The position numbers and the translations under genes are program-made. Shown in pieces: positions 26,236 through 64,000 of a DNA stretch of 64,000 nt. Positions within the stretch are counted from its first letter, which is position 1; the number at the start of each line of letters is the position of its first letter. The DNA comes from Flavobacteriales bacterium (GTDB lineage: Bacteria; Bacteroidota; Bacteroidia; Flavobacteriales_D; Sanyastnellaceae), in contig CANEVR010000005.1 of the NCBI GenBank assembly GCA_947442505.1, positions 1 through 64,000 on the forward strand, read 5' to 3'. The notes under the pieces are model-generated. The model worked only from the letters and a program-made list of their open reading frames with translations, was not told where the DNA came from and did not search any database.

Positions 26236-26703
26236 ATGCAAGTAAAAATGATCGAGACCAAGTGTTTCATACCCCAGCCATTGGAAAAAGTTTGGGATTT
26301 TTTTTCGTCCCCCATCAACCTCAATGCCATCACCCCTGATGATTTGCATTTTGAAATACTCACGGATTTGACCAACAAGAAGATGTATCCTGGGATGATT
26401 ATTCGCTACAAGATCAAACCCATGTTGAACATCCCCATGTCATGGACGACGGAGATTTCGCATTGTGAGGAGGGACGGATGTTTGTGGACGAGCAGCGCT
26501 TTGGGCCCTATGCCTTTTGGCACCACCAGCATTTCTTTGAAGCTGCGGAAGGCGGAGTTTGGATGACGGATACCGTGCACTACGCCGTGGGTTGGGGACC
26601 ATTGGGATGGTTGGCCTCTAAGCTATTTGTCGATGCCAAGTTGCAGCACATTTTTGATTATCGGGAGCGGAAGGTGGAAGAGTTGTTTGGGAGAAAGGGA
26701 TGA
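26236..26703 (+). CDS. SRPBCC (START/polyketide-cyclase fold) protein
   Basis: A 155-aa protein beginning MQVKMIETKCFIPQPLEKVW. The pattern (PLEKVWDFFSSPINLNAITP, GMIIRYKIKP, HHQHFFEAAEGGVWMTDTVH, FDYRERKVEELF) is the SRPBCC/ligand-binding cyclase fold. The open frame extends 82 codons upstream antisense to the subtilase gene; the ATG at 26236 is the first outside that gene and matches the family start. The ligand is unknown. It is divergent from the subtilase gene. Confidence 0.8.
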   Translation: MQVKMIETKCFIPQPLEKVWDFFSSPINLNAITPDDLHFEILTDLTNKKMYPGMIIRYKIKPMLNIPMSWTTEISHCEEGRMFVDEQRFGPYAFWHHQHFFEAAEGGVWMTDTVHYAVGWGPLGWLASKLFVDAKLQHIFDYRERKVEELFGRKG

Positions 26704-26738
26704 GGGGATGAAGGGATGAAGGGATGAGGGGATGATGT
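26698..26738. repeat. Tandem GGATGAAG-type octamer repeat
   Basis: Four to five degenerate 8-9 bp units (GGATGAAG / GGATGAGG) overlap the stop of the SRPBCC gene. The same unit recurs near 29296, 29788 and 58486. The rest of 26739-26899 holds no gene. Confidence 0.7.
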
Positions 26739-29431: not shown

Positions 29432-29505
29432 CCCCTCCTACTTTTTCGAAGAAAAAGAAAGGAGGGGTGGACAGACGAGCGATAGCGATGTATGGCCGGG
29501 GTGGT
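29432..29505 (-). repeat. Composite palindromic element, copy A
   Basis: CCCCTCCT (29432-29439) pairs with AGGAGGGG (29460-29467) around an inner CTTTTTC-GAA-GAAAAAG stem. A variable GC-rich segment follows and the element ends in GGGGTGGT. It has the same orientation as copy D in the adhesin gene. It lies in the 498-bp gene-free stretch 29372-29869. Confidence 0.7.
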
Positions 29506-29561: not shown

Positions 29562-29613
29562 ACCACCCCGTCACTTCGTGCCACCCCTCCTATCCACTGC
29601 GTGGCAGGAGGGG
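29562..29613 (+). repeat. Composite palindromic element, copy B
   Basis: ACCACCCC, a short CAC-TTC-GTG hairpin, then CCCCTCCT (29584-29591) pairing with AGGAGGGG (29606-29613) around CCAC-TGC-GTGG. It is opposite in orientation to copy A. Confidence 0.7.
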
Positions 29614-29705: not shown

Positions 29706-29782
29706 GGGCGAATATCAATTCGCCCCTACAGATCATCGCCACGTCCCTTCCTGTTCATTAGGGCGAATATCAATTCGCCCCT
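29706..29782. repeat. Two copies of the GGGCGAAT...ATTCGCCC palindrome
   Basis: Copies at 29706-29727 and 29761-29782 are identical 22-mers 55 bp apart, each nearly palindromic (GGGCGAAT and ATTCGCCC arms). A third copy with one change is translated at 58792-58813. Confidence 0.75.
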
Positions 29783-29787
29783 ATCGT

Positions 29788-29821
29788 TCATCCCCTCATC
29801 CCTTCATCCCTTCATCCCTTT
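29788..29821. repeat. GGATGAAG-type octamer tract (reverse orientation)
   Basis: CATCCC/TTCATCCC units run directly after the palindrome at 29782; the same tract occurs at 26698, 29296 and 58486. Confidence 0.6.
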
Positions 29822-29857
29822 TTCACTCAATTCACCACGCAATCAAGAATACACCCT

Positions 29858-58395: not shown

Positions 58396-58603
58396 ACCTT
58401 ACAAACCATCTAAAATACCCGTTAGCTATTCATCCCCAATGGCTGGCGGAATTTCAGAATGAAAAGGAAAATGAATACTCTTTTGTCTCCTCATCCCTTC
58501 ATCCCTTTATACCACCCCGTCCAGACAGCGCTAGCGCTCGTCCGGACACCCCTCCTATCCACTTCGTGGCAGGAGGGGAAATATCGGCCATTGCAATACG
58601 CTC
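58396..58603. other. Repeat-rich intergenic stretch
   Basis: This 208-bp gap between the convergent rfbB and adhesin genes holds an AGAATGAAAA-type tract also found near 29645, a GGATGAAG-type tract (58486-58508) and composite palindrome copy C. No gene or clear T-run terminator is seen. Confidence 0.6.
58511..58578 (+). repeat. Composite palindromic element, copy C
   Basis: ACCACCCC, then a long hairpin GTCCAGAC...GTCCGGAC around the palindrome AGCGCTAGCGCT, then CCCCTCCT (58549-58556) pairing with AGGAGGGG (58571-58578) around CCAC-TTC-GTGG. It is nearly the reverse complement of copy D, 310 bp away. Confidence 0.75.
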
Positions 58604-61600
58604 CTACTGAATGACTAATCTCATCCGCTCCTCTCCAACCAACACCACATAAATCCCACTCGCCAAATCACCAAATTTGATTTCAATAGGATTGCTATTC
58701 ACCACCACGTTGGTCTTAAATACAACCTTACCCGTAATGTCCATCATCACCAATTCCTGAGCGGAGGTCGATTCCGTTGTGTTTGGTTCCTGGGCGAATA
58801 TCCATTCGCCCCTACGAGAGCCTTTGTATTGTAGGACAAAACTTCCTGTTGCTGTTGGGTTGGGATAAATCGAATAACTCGCATTCATCTCCCCTCCTGC
58901 GCGAAGCGATAGGAGGGGTGTCCGGACGAGCGCTTGCGCTGTCTGGACGGGGTGGTTTTCAAGGATCATTCCCGCATTGCCAATTCTCAAACACTGCACC
59001 GTTCCCCAATTTCCGACAGTGCCGCTGGTATGAACCGGTCTCACTCTCACATTGTAGGTGTTGCCTGCAGCGATGCCCGGAATATTGCTCAAGAAGAAAG
59101 CACTGGCGTAGGCGCCACCTTGAACGACTTGCGCTGTCCCTGCTGTGGGCAACACTTGCGTGAATTCCCAATCATAGCGCATCGCACCGCAGACCGTTCT
59201 GTCTGGCGCGATGGTGCTGTTGATGGATTTACTGATGGGGCAACGATCAGAGTTGCGCAAAGCGATGGTGGGCTGGGCATTGAGTATCGTGGTGCAGGTT
59301 GATGTGGCCTGCGCATACAAGTTCTCAAAATTTCCTGCTGCATCAAAGAGCGAATAAAACACGGGGACACGCATCGTGTAGACAATGGGGCTCGTTCCTT
59401 GGTTCGGAGGCAACAAGGTTCCCAAACGTGCCACCACGGTGTTGGATGTTGGCGTGGTATACGTCCATGGCGTGATGTTTTGGTTCACCCCATTTTGTGT
59501 AGCTGACAATACTTCGAAAGTGTAAGCCACTGCATTGGCTCTGTATTGCGCCTTGAAGCTGTTGCAGACGCTGGTGTAGATTCCTGTATTGTTGCTGTAG
59601 TAATGATCACATGTTGATGAGGTCAAATGACTGAAACAAATCTTGGCGCTGGTATTCATGGGGCCGCTGATGTTGTGCACCGCGACGTAGTAAATTTGGC
59701 CGACGGTCAATTGGTCGGTCAACAACGTTTGATTTCCTGTTGTGGCTTCATGCTCGGTTTCTAATAGGGTAAGGCAACCTCCGGCAGAAACGGCAAACAG
59801 ACGGATGTCGTTGTCACCGGTGGCTGCAGAGAGACCGGCGCGGAAAGTATTGTATTGCGCGGTAAAGCTGTACCAAAGGTCGTTGCCATTTCCTTCAATG
59901 GCCGGTGAGTTGACGCCATTGTTCAGGTTTGCTGAACGAATGTTGTTTCCTACACAAACAGGATAGATGGAAGTGGTGAAGGCAACCGCGTTGACGGAGG
60001 TTGGAGCCAATCCTTCATCGATTTGGTTGTTGCAGTTGTTGTCCAAGCCGTCACAGATTTCGGGTTGTGGTAAAATACAACTGTTGTCATCAGTGTTGGC
60101 CAAGGGATCGAAGTTACAAGCGCCAGGATCGGTACAACCCAAGATGGCGCAGTTCTCGTCTACCTGGCCATCGCAATTGTCATCCATTTGATTGTCGCAG
60201 ATTTCTTCAGTGCCAGGATTGGCCTGTGCATCGTCGTCATTGCAATCGTTGGCATTGGATACATATCCAGGCGGAGCTAAACAAGGTGAAGAAATAGTAG
60301 TGCTTTGACTTCCTAGGTTAATACCTGTATTATATGCATATTCAAGCATCAATAATGTCGCAGATAAGTCCTCTGACTGGTACCAAAATTCAACTGTCAT
60401 ATTATTGACAGGAATAGTTTGGGTCCATCTCACGTAGTCATCAATGCCGTCAAAATATTGAGCGTTCCCGAACTTCCCAGATTGTAAACCCACATTTCCA
60501 TATCCAACAGCATTGCTACCTACTCCATTGATGATCGAATTTGAATTCTGTGACTCAAAATGAAACAGTCCTATCGTATTAGCGTCAGCAACATATGGCT
60601 GATTGGAATTGTATGAACCAATAATTTCAGCTTGTGATCTAACAACATTTGACACTCTGAGTTCATCAATTTTTCCAAGGAGATTTGGTACCGGGCTACA
60701 ATTGACACAACCTTGCGTTGCTCCCAAAAGTATGCTGTTCCATATGTAAGGTACATTTTCGAAATTGGCCGTTACCTTTAATATGCCATCAACGTAATAT
60801 TTGCCTTGACTACCATTTTTGGTAAGCGCAATATGATGCCAAGCATTGCTATTCTGAATCGCAGAAGTGCTTCCAGGAAGGTAAAAAACAAATGAATTCT
60901 GTACATTCAATGAACCGCTTCCGGCAGTAACAGGTTGTAATAAATCACCATAACCATCTCCATCGTTATCCAAGTAATAGGTATTGATGATTCCTTCATC
61001 GATATCGCCATCACAGTTATCATCCAAACTATTGCAAATTTCAGGTTGTGGTAAAACACAACTATTGTCATCAGTATTGGCCAAAGGATCAAAGTTACAA
61101 GCGCTTGGTTCGGTACAACCGAGGAGGGTACAGTTCTCATCCACTTGCCCATCGCAGTTGTCATCACGGTTGTTGTCGCAGATTTCTTCAGCACCAGGAT
61201 TTGCCTGTGCATCGTCATCATTGCAATCGGAATTATCCGTAACAAAACCGTCCAGTTGGTTGCAATCTTGTACAACATTGTTTGGGTCTCCAAAACCGTC
61301 TCCGTCTGCATCGGCATACCAATCGAGCAATGGATTCACCGTGATGGTGATGCTATCGGTGCAGGTTTGGGTTGCGGTGGTGACGGTGGCAGTGTAAGTT
61401 GTTGTTTCAGTTGGGGAGACGCTGATGGTTGGGGTTGTAGCGCCGGTGGACCAACCAAACTGATCGGAGCTACTATTCAGTAGTACTTCTGTTTCAACTA
61501 CTCCGCGTAAATAATACCCCTCTTGTACATCATTCCATTTCCCTATTCCATGCGCTGAATTTATCACGGCACAATTCTCGTTTCCACCTCCCGCAAAATG

Positions 61601-64000
61601 ATTGGGCTCGCCACCTCCCCAGTTTGTGTATGTCACAGCCGATGAATTTGACCATTCCCAGCCTCCGCTTGGTTCGCTGTAAAAAGGAGAATTCAAATTT
61701 TGATACAACCCAAACCACAACATTTCTCCATTAGTAAAATCTGCAATAGCACTATTTTCTTCCACGGTCGTGATTGTTGCCAAATAAACTTGATCACTAT
61801 TAATTGATTCAACCCAATTTCTCAATGCATTCCATCCACTAAAAAAATTCTGCGTTACATAGTAATAATGTCCTGAATATTCACCAACTAAAACCAATTC
61901 TGATATTTGCGGCAGATATGAATCAGTCAAATCAATCCCATTTTGACTGTATTCCAAATTCAAGATTTGAGTTTCACCTGAACAAGTTGAATCAGAAATT
62001 GCTGCAATCTCACAAGTCAACAATGGCTCCACCGACAAAGTCAAAGTCACTGTGGAATCACAACCTGTTGCTGAACTAAACACCTCCGTGTACGTTCCTG
62101 CGGTGGTCAAAGTTTGTGCCCCCAAAGTATAGGTTTCTCCTTCGATGATGGTAGCGCTGATGGCATTGGTAACACCAGGTGTGACCGTGATGGTTACTTC
62201 GTCAGTGCAACTGTTGGTGCCGTCACTAAAAACACAGCTGTAAGTAGTGGTGGTGTCCGGCGATAGCGTCACTGATGCATTGGATACTCCTGTTGACCAT
62301 GTATACTGGTTATCCGTCACCACACTTCCTCCCCCGCGATTCCACAACACAGCACTGGCGGAAGTTACACTCTCCCCTGCTATCGTTGCCGATCCTCCTA
62401 TTCCTCCATACAAAACAAAATCAGTTCCGTTGTGCACGACACTGTTCCAATAATCATCTGATGACGAACCCGCGTTGACCGATGAATGAACTGTGAGGTT
62501 GTCATTGAATTCAACAAATGAAGCGTCCAATCCGCCGTTGGTCTGGCCACTGTAGGTGCCCACAACACCCCATTTGCCATTCCCTCGGGCTAGACCATAG
62601 AAATAGGTATCGCCTGTACTCGTTTCATGCCCCACCACCTGCAAGGGAACCCCTGCTGGCGAATATTGGGCTAAAAAACCTCTGTACGTTGCCGCTGATG
62701 GCAATTCCAATGTTTGTCCATTGGTAGAATAGAATACTGCCGCATTTCCTTTGTAATAGCCGCAAATCCATGGATTGCCATTGGCATCAATGGCTACATC
62801 ACTGCCTTGTGTCAATGACCCGACACCATCTCCTACATTACCAAACGACTGTCCCCATTGGTAAACGCCATTGGTGTTCAATTTGATGATACAGCCCAAG
62901 CCGATTCCAGGATTGAAAATATTGGAGGCACTGCCATTGGCATCAATGTACTGAGCTGAGGTGCCGTTGCTCCATGAGCGGAAACTGGTGGTCATGTAAA
63001 TATTGTCGTTGTCATCTAATGCAATGCTTGCCAAACCTGTATCGCGGTTGTAGATGCTTCCTTTCCACAAAATATTGCCATTGGCATCAAATTTTACAAT
63101 CAAACCCGAACCATAATTGGAGCCAAAAGAACTAATGCCTGTACTACCATTGGGCCCAAAAATGGTGACCGCAAAGGAGGATGGGCAGCAACCGTTAAAT
63201 CCACCCGTAACAATAGGATTGCCGCTGTTGTCCAGCGCAACACCATTGAAACCATCATTGGAAGTCCCACGGCAAGAAGCTCCCCAAACTACTGCTCCAG
63301 CCGAATTGAGTTTAACCAAAAAACCATCTTGGTGGTTTACGTTGTTGGTAGAAGTGTAGGGAGCGGTAAAACTACCAGATGTTCCATTGATGGTAAAAGT
63401 TTGGTTGTAACGACCTACCCAATAAACATTGCCCGCGGCATCTACCGCCATGGAATATGGATAATCTTGTTCACCCGATGAACCACCTTTTATGGCCCAC
63501 TGAACAACCCCGCAACTGTTGTACTTCACCAAAAATGCATCCCGATTGCCAGAGCTGGTCAATGTTGTATTTCCAATTGTAATGGAACCGGTAAAGGTTC
63601 CAGTGGTGTAATAATTCCCTTGCTCATCATAAACCACTTTGTGCGCGCCTTGGGCATTGTTGCCACTGGATTTCACCGCAGGAGAGAAACAATTGGACTG
63701 ATTGGATTGCCCCGGCGTGGCGCTCAGGGTAATGCTTTGTCCAGCACAAATGGTGGTGGGCACAGTCGCTATTTGTCCCAAATTACAACCCACCGATGTT
63801 GAGGTGGTGGTGTAAAGTTGTTGGATTTCGTTTTCTGCAAGTGATCGATTATAAATGGAAACATTATCAATTACTCCATTAAAAAAAGCAGCGTTACTGG
63901 AAAAAGTGGAACCGAAAAATGCAAAATTAGAGGGATTAACTATCGTATTCACAACAGAAACATTGACTAAATTTCCATTTATATAAGTAGATAGTGTATT
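58604..64000 (-). CDS. Giant mosaic T9SS adhesin with lectin domains (5' end outside window)
   Basis: At least 1798 codons are open; the frame continues past the right edge, so the N-terminus is missing. In protein order: the end of a LamG domain (64000-63790); SBBP-like beta-propeller repeats (DGFLVKLNSAGAVVWG..., to about 62260); Ig/PKD-like segments. A C-type lectin domain follows (about 61910-61490) with EPN at 61602-61610 and WND nearby, the Ca2+ site of mannose-type lectins. Next is a MopE-type acidic motif (DCNDDDAQANPG), a permuted LamG (about 60925-60288), a second MopE-type motif and a PPC-like domain. Last comes a T9SS sorting domain (YSIYPNPTATGSFVL...). It is probably a surface adhesin. 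Two palindromic repeats are translated near its end. Confidence 0.88.
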   Translation of the reverse strand, partial: NTLSTYINGNLVNVSVVNTIVNPSNFAFFGSTFSSNAAFFNGVIDNVSIYNRSLAENEIQQLYTTTSTSVGCNLGQIATVPTTICAGQSITLSATPGQSNQSNCFSPAVKSSGNNAQGAHKVVYDEQGNYYTTGTFTGSITIGNTTLTSSGNRDAFLVKYNSCGVVQWAIKGGSSGEQDYPYSMAVDAAGNVYWVGRYNQTFTINGTSGSFTAPYTSTNNVNHQDGFLVKLNSAGAVVWGASCRGTSNDGFNGVALDNSGNPIVTGGFNGCCPSSFAVTIFGPNGSTGISSFGSNYGSGLIVKFDANGNILWKGSIYNRDTGLASIALDDNDNIYMTTSFRSWSNGTSAQYIDANGSASNIFNPGIGLGCIIKLNTNGVYQWGQSFGNVGDGVGSLTQGSDVAIDANGNPWICGYYKGNAAVFYSTNGQTLELPSAATYRGFLAQYSPAGVPLQVVGHETSTGDTYFYGLARGNGKWGVVGTYSGQTNGGLDASFVEFNDNLTVHSSVNAGSSSDDYWNSVVHNGTDFVLYGGIGGSATIAGESVTSASAVLWNRGGGSVVTDNQYTWSTGVSNASVTLSPDTTTTYSCVFSDGTNSCTDEVTITVTPGVTNAISATIIEGETYTLGAQTLTTAGTYTEVFSSATGCDSTVTLTLSVEPLLTCEIAAISDSTCSGETQILNLEYSQNGIDLTDSYLPQISELVLVGEYSGHYYYVTQNFFSGWNALRNWVESINSDQVYLATITTVEENSAIADFTNGEMLWFGLYQNLNSPFYSEPSGGWEWSNSSAVTYTNWGGGEPNHFAGGGNENCAVINSAHGIGKWNDVQEGYYLRGVVETEVLLNSSSDQFGWSTGATTPTISVSPTETTTYTATVTTATQTCTDSITITVNPLLDWYADADGDGFGDPNNVVQDCNQLDGFVTDNSDCNDDDAQANPGAEEICDNNRDDNCDGQVDENCTLLGCTEPSACNFDPLANTDDNSCVLPQPEICNSLDDNCDGDIDEGIINTYYLDNDGDGYGDLLQPVTAGSGSLNVQNSFVFYLPGSTSAIQNSNAWHHIALTKNGSQGKYYVDGILKVTANFENVPYIWNSILLGATQGCVNCSPVPNLLGKIDELRVSNVVRSQAEIIGSYNSNQPYVADANTIGLFHFESQNSNSIINGVGSNAVGYGNVGLQSGKFGNAQYFDGIDDYVRWTQTIPVNNMTVEFWYQSEDLSATLLMLEYAYNTGINLGSQSTTISSPCLAPPGYVSNANDCNDDDAQANPGTEEICDNQMDDNCDGQVDENCAILGCTDPGACNFDPLANTDDNSCILPQPEICDGLDNNCNNQIDEGLAPTSVNAVAFTTSIYPVCVGNNIRSANLNNGVNSPAIEGNGNDLWYSFTAQYNTFRAGLSAATGDNDIRLFAVSAGGCLTLLETEHEATTGNQTLLTDQLTVGQIYYVAVHNISGPMNTSAKICFSHLTSSTCDHYYSNNTGIYTSVCNSFKAQYRANAVAYTFEVLSATQNGVNQNITPWTYTTPTSNTVVARLGTLLPPNQGTSPIVYTMRVPVFYSLFDAAGNFENLYAQATSTCTTILNAQPTIALRNSDRCPISKSINSTIAPDRTVCGAMRYDWEFTQVLPTAGTAQVVQGGAYASAFFLSNIPGIAAGNTYNVRVRPVHTSGTVGNWGTVQCLRIGNAGMILENHPVQTAQALVRTPLLSLRAGGEMNASYSIYPNPTATGSFVLQYKGSRRGEWIFAQEPNTTESTSAQELVMMDITGKVVFKTNVVVNSNPIEIKFGDLASGIYVVLVGEERMRLVIQ
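58792..58813. repeat. GGGCGAAT...ATTCGCCC palindrome translated in the sorting domain
   Basis: The 22-mer differs by one base from the two intergenic copies at 29706 and 29761. Here it is read in frame as part of SRRGEWIFAQE within the T9SS domain of the adhesin. Confidence 0.75.
58891..58956 (-). repeat. Composite palindromic element, copy D, inside the adhesin gene
   Basis: The 66-bp copy (22 codons, frame-preserving) has the same parts as copies A-C. It is translated as HPVQTAQALVRTPLLSLRAG between the last extracellular domain and the T9SS sorting domain. Its inner stem CGC-GAA-GCG replaces the CCAC-TTC-GTGG type of copies B and C. Confidence 0.8.
60016..61229. repeat. Intragenic 233-bp direct repeat (MopE-type motif)
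   Basis: Bases 60016-60248 and 60997-61229 are closely similar without length change and encode the two copies of the DCNDDDAQANPG...DNCDGQVDENC...ACNFDPLANTDDNSC motif of the adhesin. Confidence 0.85.

What the first reader, a model, noticed from the sequence alone, without database searches (positions are those of the whole stretch)
58891..58956. A dispersed palindromic repeat is translated in frame inside a T9SS adhesin
Copy D of the composite palindrome is a complete, 66-bp (22-codon) element inside the coding sequence, just before the T9SS sorting domain. Nearly the same sequence in reverse orientation (copy C) lies in the noncoding gap only 310 bp away, and two more copies lie near 29.5 kb. 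Repeats that insert into genes in frame and are tolerated as linker peptides are known from Rickettsia palindromic elements, but I know of no such description for T9SS cargo. The site, between the folded domains and the export signal, would tolerate an extra peptide. It may be a mobile non-autonomous element that shapes surface proteins.
Basis: partly seen in the sequence, partly recalled or inferred. Interest (0 to 1): 0.8.

Follow-up and report, generated by a model that had tools for sequence, protein, structure and literature searches.

The report
Palindromic repeat inside secreted adhesin linkers
A short repeat that folds into two hairpins is scattered between the genes of a freshwater bacterial genus, and in one family of secreted surface proteins it sits inside the gene and is read as a flexible linker just before the export signal, so repeat DNA has become part of a surface protein.

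Summary
The 66-bp element at 58891-58956 is a complete double hairpin (P1), read in frame just before the T9SS sorting domain. P1 has a fixed scaffold, CCCCTCCT-hairpin-AGGAGGGGTG-hairpin-CGGGGTGGT, with interchangeable hairpins. This genome has 24 exact copies. Six of seven genus members carry the exact scaffold (all seven carry P1 by similarity); 107 other genomes of the family lack it.

Seven P1 copies in four species are in frame, all in one adhesin family and at the same linker. All seven have core lengths divisible by three (57, 63 or 66 nt), against 8 of 65 other copies. The coding reading is therefore real and selected. A second palindrome (P2, a GTAG-type REP) is also translated, in a loop of the sorting domain. 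AlphaFold gives low confidence at exactly these two insertions.

The idea of hopping into surface proteins is only partly supported. One or few ancestral insertions, spread and remodelled by recombination among paralogues, fit best. I found no clean empty site, target duplication or linked transposase. In-frame REPs are known from Rickettsia and elsewhere; T9SS cargo, module swapping with frame retention, and a scaffold recurring in several phyla appear new.

The parts
58891..58956 (+). P1 copy D: complete double-hairpin repeat, translated on the minus strand as NHPVQTAQALVRTPLLSLRAGGE
58511..58578 (-). P1 copy C, noncoding, just downstream of the adhesin stop codon; second hairpin module one base different from copy D
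29432..29505 (+). P1 copy A, noncoding
29562..29613 (-). P1 copy B, noncoding, short second module (GCACGAAGTGAC)
58604..63952 (-). adhesin ORF (frame continues past the window to contig position 64573); lectin-type, Laminin_G_3 and MopE-like domains, ending in a T9SS sorting domain
58628..58870 (-). T9SS type A sorting domain (PF18962 Por_Secre_tail)
58792..58815 (-). P2: GTAG-tagged palindrome GTAGGGGCGAATGGATATTCGCCC, translated in frame in a loop of the sorting domain (peptide RRGEWIFAQ)
29706..29729 (-). P2 copy outside the adhesin
29761..29784 (-). P2 copy, one mismatch
58586..58607 (-). degenerate GTAG palindrome (GTAGGAGCGTATTGCAATGGCC) that supplies the TAG stop codon of the adhesin
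   Evidence: sequence

Best explanation
P1 is a short, non-autonomous, dispersed double-hairpin repeat, analogous to a REP dimer or REPIN. It has a conserved scaffold and interchangeable hairpin modules. An ancestral copy entered the flexible linker between the last folded domain and the T9SS sorting domain of an adhesin, in frame. It was kept because that linker is disordered and tolerates sequence change, while frameshifts would destroy the export signal. Recombination among the adhesin paralogues then spread it and swapped its hairpin modules, always in multiples of three. It now serves as a translated spacer. Shown: repeat nature, frame retention, translated context, module variation, paralogue mosaicism, predicted disorder. 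Inferred: the insertion event itself, gene conversion as the spreading route, and the lack of any specific peptide function. The mobilising enzyme is unknown.
For: There are 24 exact scaffold copies in the genome and 0 in the control. Six of 7 genus genomes have exact matches, against 0 of 107 other family genomes; 72 copies were collected from the genus. Seven in-frame copies are at the same site. Core lengths 57/63/66 are all 0 mod 3, against 8 of 65 noncoding (Fisher p 4e-6; distinct alleles 5/5 against 7/60, p 1e-4). The stem-preserving changes TCG CTT CGC to TCT CTA CGA between G000_C22 and G005_C194 are all synonymous. P1 is 68/68 identical in C5, C26 and C62 with mostly 78-94% flanks; C22 against C194 is 93% with 67-71% next to it. 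Trees of the upstream domain and of the CTD disagree. pLDDT is under 50 at 208-237 (P1 peptide) and 261-275 (P2 peptide), with confident beta-sandwich domains on either side. Element-free paralogues exist (G003_C146, G005_C11, G002_C21, G000_C60). In P. gingivalis RgpB the IgSF-CTD linker is disordered and tolerates insertions and substitutions (PMC4804311).
Against: Element-free paralogues have a different linker, not a precise empty site. No intergenic empty site was found. The in-frame copies are not independent, so the statistics overstate the evidence. There is no expression or proteomic evidence. The genomes are metagenome assemblies, and several copies lie near contig ends.
Confidence: 0.72

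Rival explanations
1. Active mobile element: P1 still transposes as single-stranded hairpin DNA and has inserted repeatedly and independently into the same tolerant linker of several adhesins.
For: The G006_C103 copy has both hairpin modules different from the other six and uses a module type resembling others in G006. P1 presence is not one clade in either tree. The hairpins keep a C-GNA-G apex (32 of 42 distinct first modules, 4.9 expected), a DNA hairpin type known for high stability (own knowledge; class described in PMC10527192), as expected of a single-strand substrate.
Against: Identical site, orientation and reading phase in all seven. No target-site duplication, no clean empty site, and neither of the two Y1 transposase genes is flanked by P1.
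Confidence: 0.15
2. The palindrome has a cellular function at DNA or RNA level (recombination hot spot for swapping sorting domains, or 3' mRNA structure), and the peptide is a side effect.
For: P1 is more alike than its flanks between paralogues and species. Stems are kept through changes. The 3' ends of several adhesin genes also carry P2, a GTAG palindrome as the stop codon, and P1 just downstream. The sorting domains are mosaics.
Against: Many adhesin paralogues recombine without P1. No Rfam family matches. Palindromes can also be kept by template switching, without selection.
Confidence: 0.1
3. Chance or assembly artefact: repeat-driven misassembly placed P1 in the adhesin ORFs.
For: Several copies lie close to contig ends.
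Against: The window copy is well inside a 74-kb contig. The same junction occurs in four separately assembled species, with consistent frame and different modules.
Confidence: 0.03

Closest known systems
Rickettsia palindromic elements (RPE) and intragenic CGTC REPs (Ogata et al. 2002, Claverie & Ogata 2003, as cited in PMC3733652)
   Same: Short dispersed palindromes, some read in frame inside genes, adding 20-30 amino acids, with the rest of the protein intact
   Different: Here the coding copies are confined to one T9SS adhesin family at one linker; the scaffold and its ends do not show the GTAG/CGTC tag at a hairpin foot as a constant feature; within its family the element is restricted to one Flavobacteriales genus
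GTAG REPs and RAYT-borne REPINs
   Same: P2 has the GTAG tag, an 8-bp stem and a 4-nt loop; GTAG REPs are known to supply TAG stop codons (PMC3733652), as seen here. P1 resembles a REP dimer in having two hairpins
   Different: P1 lacks the GTAG tag at a hairpin foot, and neither of the two Y1 transposases of the genome is flanked by P1
MITEs
   Same: Small, non-coding, dispersed, self-complementary
   Different: No target-site duplication and no parent insertion sequence found

Membership tests
Rickettsia palindromic elements / intragenic REPs | short palindromic repeat dispersed in the genome, mostly intergenic | tested here: met
   24 exact copies in G000; 65 of 72 genus copies outside the confident in-frame genes
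Rickettsia palindromic elements / intragenic REPs | in-frame translation within an intact gene | tested here: met
   seven copies, all core lengths 0 mod 3, intact sorting domain after them
Rickettsia palindromic elements / intragenic REPs | insertion into many unrelated genes of one genome | tested here: not met
   only one adhesin family in this genus, plus the 3' end of one reverse transcriptase ORF
Rickettsia palindromic elements / intragenic REPs | sequence kinship with RPE consensus | not tested
   no RPE consensus was compared
GTAG REP (for P1) | GTAG tag at the foot of the hairpin | tested here: not met
   ends are CCCCTCCT and GGGGTGGT in the aligned copies
GTAG REP (for P2) | GTAG tag, short stem and loop, many copies | tested here: met
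   GTAGGGGCGAATNNNNATTCGCCC, 45 listed copies in 6 of 7 genus genomes, control 0
RAYT-mobilised element (REPIN) | a RAYT gene flanked by the repeat | tested here: not met
   two Y1_Tnp genes in the genome, neither with P1 within the flanks read
MITE | target-site duplication and clean empty site | tested here: inconclusive
   none seen; linkers and intergenic flanks too divergent
T9SS cargo | C-terminal sorting domain over the curated cut-off | tested here: met
   PF18962 32.9 bits, cut-off 27; five paralogues pass TIGR04183

The most novel reading that the evidence does not exclude
P1 belongs to a so far unnamed class of double-hairpin elements with one scaffold (CCCCTCCT...AGGAGGGGTG...GGGGTGGT) shared across phyla and with host-specific, swappable hairpins. 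It spreads by an unknown enzyme and repeatedly becomes translated linker or loop sequence: T9SS adhesins here, a methyltransferase in a Patescibacteria MAG, the DsbD inter-domain linker and a T7-like RNA polymerase elsewhere.
Probability: 0.3. Interest if true: 0.75.

Novelty: new variant of a known kind. Interest (0 to 1): 0.57.

Why it matters
It gives a multi-species case in which repeat DNA turned into protein while staying a repeat. The coding copies keep hairpins and reading frame together, and the intergenic copies of the same genomes are a built-in neutral control for frame. It also predicts that T9SS linkers and sorting-domain loops are safe landing zones. That is testable, because linker length affects cleavage and surface anchoring in Porphyromonas (PMC4804311). 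The same scaffold in distant phyla points to an undescribed class of elements.

Tried and rejected
(1) RAYT as mobiliser of P1: two Y1_Tnp genes were found, neither flanked by P1. (2) Known structured RNA: no Rfam match. (3) Clean empty sites: compared two intergenic P1 sites with relatives; homology stops before the repeat. (4) Other P1-bearing ORFs in the genus (139-273 aa) were treated as spurious: no Pfam match. One apparent N-terminal case is an over-extended start of an aspartyl-tRNA synthetase-like ORF. (5) Plasmid collection: only weak chance matches. (6) Literature: a text search for the motif returned only unrelated papers among those listed, and none of the papers listed described T9SS-linker palindromes; subscription journals are mostly not held.

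Full report
**Observation.** The window lies on contig C5 of a 2.64-Mb, 106-contig genome (G000). Its closest relatives in the collection with titles are Flavobacteriales assemblies, by their isolate names probably from lakes (the habitat is my inference). The element at 58891-58956 is real and complete. It folds as single-stranded DNA into two hairpins and lies in frame in an adhesin ORF on the minus strand, directly before the T9SS sorting domain (PF18962).

**What the repeat is.** Aligned copies show three conserved blocks, CCCCTCCT, AGGAGGGGTG and CGGGGTGGT, separated by two self-complementary modules that vary in sequence and length. Among 72 copies from seven genus genomes there are 42 distinct first modules and 51 distinct second modules. 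On average both fold better than shuffles. 32 of the 42 first modules carry a C-GNA-G apex, against 4.9 expected. GCGAAGC-type DNA mini-hairpins are known for unusual stability (own knowledge; PMC10527192 for the class), so selection or copying as folded single-strand DNA is plausible but not shown.

**Distribution.** By similarity to the window copy, P1 occurs in all seven genus members and in none of 53 other genomes of the family and order. The scaffold pattern has 24 exact matches in G000 and hits 6 of 7 genus genomes, with none in 107 others of the family and none for the reversed control. A scan of about 85,000 species found 93 stretches. A large part of those listed are from this genus. 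The rest come from other Bacteroidota, Acidobacteriota, Patescibacteria, a Gammaproteobacteria MAG and others, with other hairpins in the same scaffold. Simple base counting predicts well under one match by chance (my estimate).

**Coding copies.** Seven copies are in frame, four in G000 and one each in G001, G005 and G006. All are in one adhesin family, at the same place after a conserved GM and before YPNP/FPNP. Their core lengths are 57, 63 and 66 nt, all divisible by three, against 8 of 65 noncoding copies. Copies related by descent are not independent; with distinct alleles the contrast is still 5 of 5 against 7 of 60 (p 1e-4). Between G000_C22 and G005_C194 the stem changed on both sides, and all three codons changed synonymously. 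Over the 57-nt alleles of three species I count five synonymous and two amino-acid changes, which is suggestive only (binomial p 0.013).

**How it got there.** Three G000 paralogues share P1 at 68/68 while most of their flanks are 78-94% identical and parts of the sorting domain 62-80%. C22 and C194, from different species, share 93% of P1 but about 70% next to it. Trees of the upstream domain and of the sorting domain disagree, and P1 is not one clade in either, though support is low. The window gene pairs with C62 upstream and with P1-free G003_C146/G005_C11 in its sorting domain. The GTTCTGC-type second module occurs only in coding copies. The AGCGC-type second module of C5, C26 and C62 is one base from the noncoding copy C nearby, so the module was probably swapped in place, adding nine bases. 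I infer few insertions plus conversion. P1-free paralogues have unrelated linkers, not a clean empty site. Nor was a clean empty site found at two intergenic sites.

**A second palindrome.** P2 (GTAGGGGCGAAT-N4-ATTCGCCC) has the features of a GTAG REP. It is translated in a loop of the sorting domain in several paralogues and absent in others. Related GTAG palindromes supply the TAG stop codon of some of these genes, as reported for REPs (PMC3733652). The 3' end of these genes is thus a landing zone for several repeat families.

**Protein consequence.** An AlphaFold model of the last 330 residues (mean pLDDT 70.6) has stretches below 50 at 208-237 and 261-275, which hold the P1 and P2 peptides; the only others are the N-terminal end and residues 54-59. 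Beta-rich domains lie on both sides, with weak FN3-like and PorU matches. In RgpB the linker before the sorting domain is disordered and accepts insertions, and its length affects LPS attachment (PMC4804311). A tolerated spacer is the best reading; a change in cleavage or anchoring is possible and untested.

**Beyond the genus.** The same scaffold lies in frame in a Patescibacteria methyltransferase, where 16 residues are missing at that position in the homologue 2igt. It also lies between the N-terminal and membrane domains of a DsbD, and in a T7-like RNA polymerase where the T7 enzyme also has a divergent stretch. These are single cases and were not pursued.

**Comparison and verdict.** It works like intragenic REPs and Rickettsia palindromic elements. 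Membership in the GTAG class fails for P1 (no tag) and holds for P2. RAYT association was tested and not met for P1. It is a new variant of a known kind: real and under frame selection, with mobility and peptide function unproven.

Noticed in passing
L178:1059-1110, L132:534-583, L146:2010-2062: The same scaffold occurs in frame in a SAM methyltransferase (Patescibacteria UBA926; extra peptide absent from homologue 2igt), between the N-terminal and membrane domains of a DsbD (Gammaproteobacteria MAG), and in a T7-like RNA polymerase (Acidobacteria).
   Followed up: partly
L056:53-122 (G002:C104): A P1 copy forms the last codons of a 415-aa reverse transcriptase ORF (RVT_1); generic and UG-type reverse transcriptase profiles match, so it could belong to a retroelement or defence system.
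   Followed up: partly
window 26688-26736, 29776-29834, 58479-58513: 8-bp tandem repeats (GGGATGAA / TTCATCCC type) lie next to several P1 copies, here and in other contigs.
   Followed up: no
L111 (G000:C60) and L049 (G003:C146): Two adhesin genes from different species are 100% identical over about 317 nt upstream but only 66-93% nearer the end, which suggests recent recombination between species.
   Followed up: no
L009:1150-1500 (G000:C22): A Y1 (IS200/RAYT-like) transposase gene is preceded by an array of short palindromes of other types (e.g. GCTCCTACGGAGC, CCCCGTAGGGG).
   Followed up: partly
L247:1851-2741 (G003:C40:6350-7240): A 297-aa ORF contains two translated P2 copies with repeated peptides (RRGELIFAPDKPNLAFDADT); it may be real or spurious.
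   Followed up: no
L125 (CAMCTV010000016.1): The record titled Chryseobacterium gleum isolate TE-11nov19-150 corresponds to genus member G002 and looks mislabelled.
   Followed up: no
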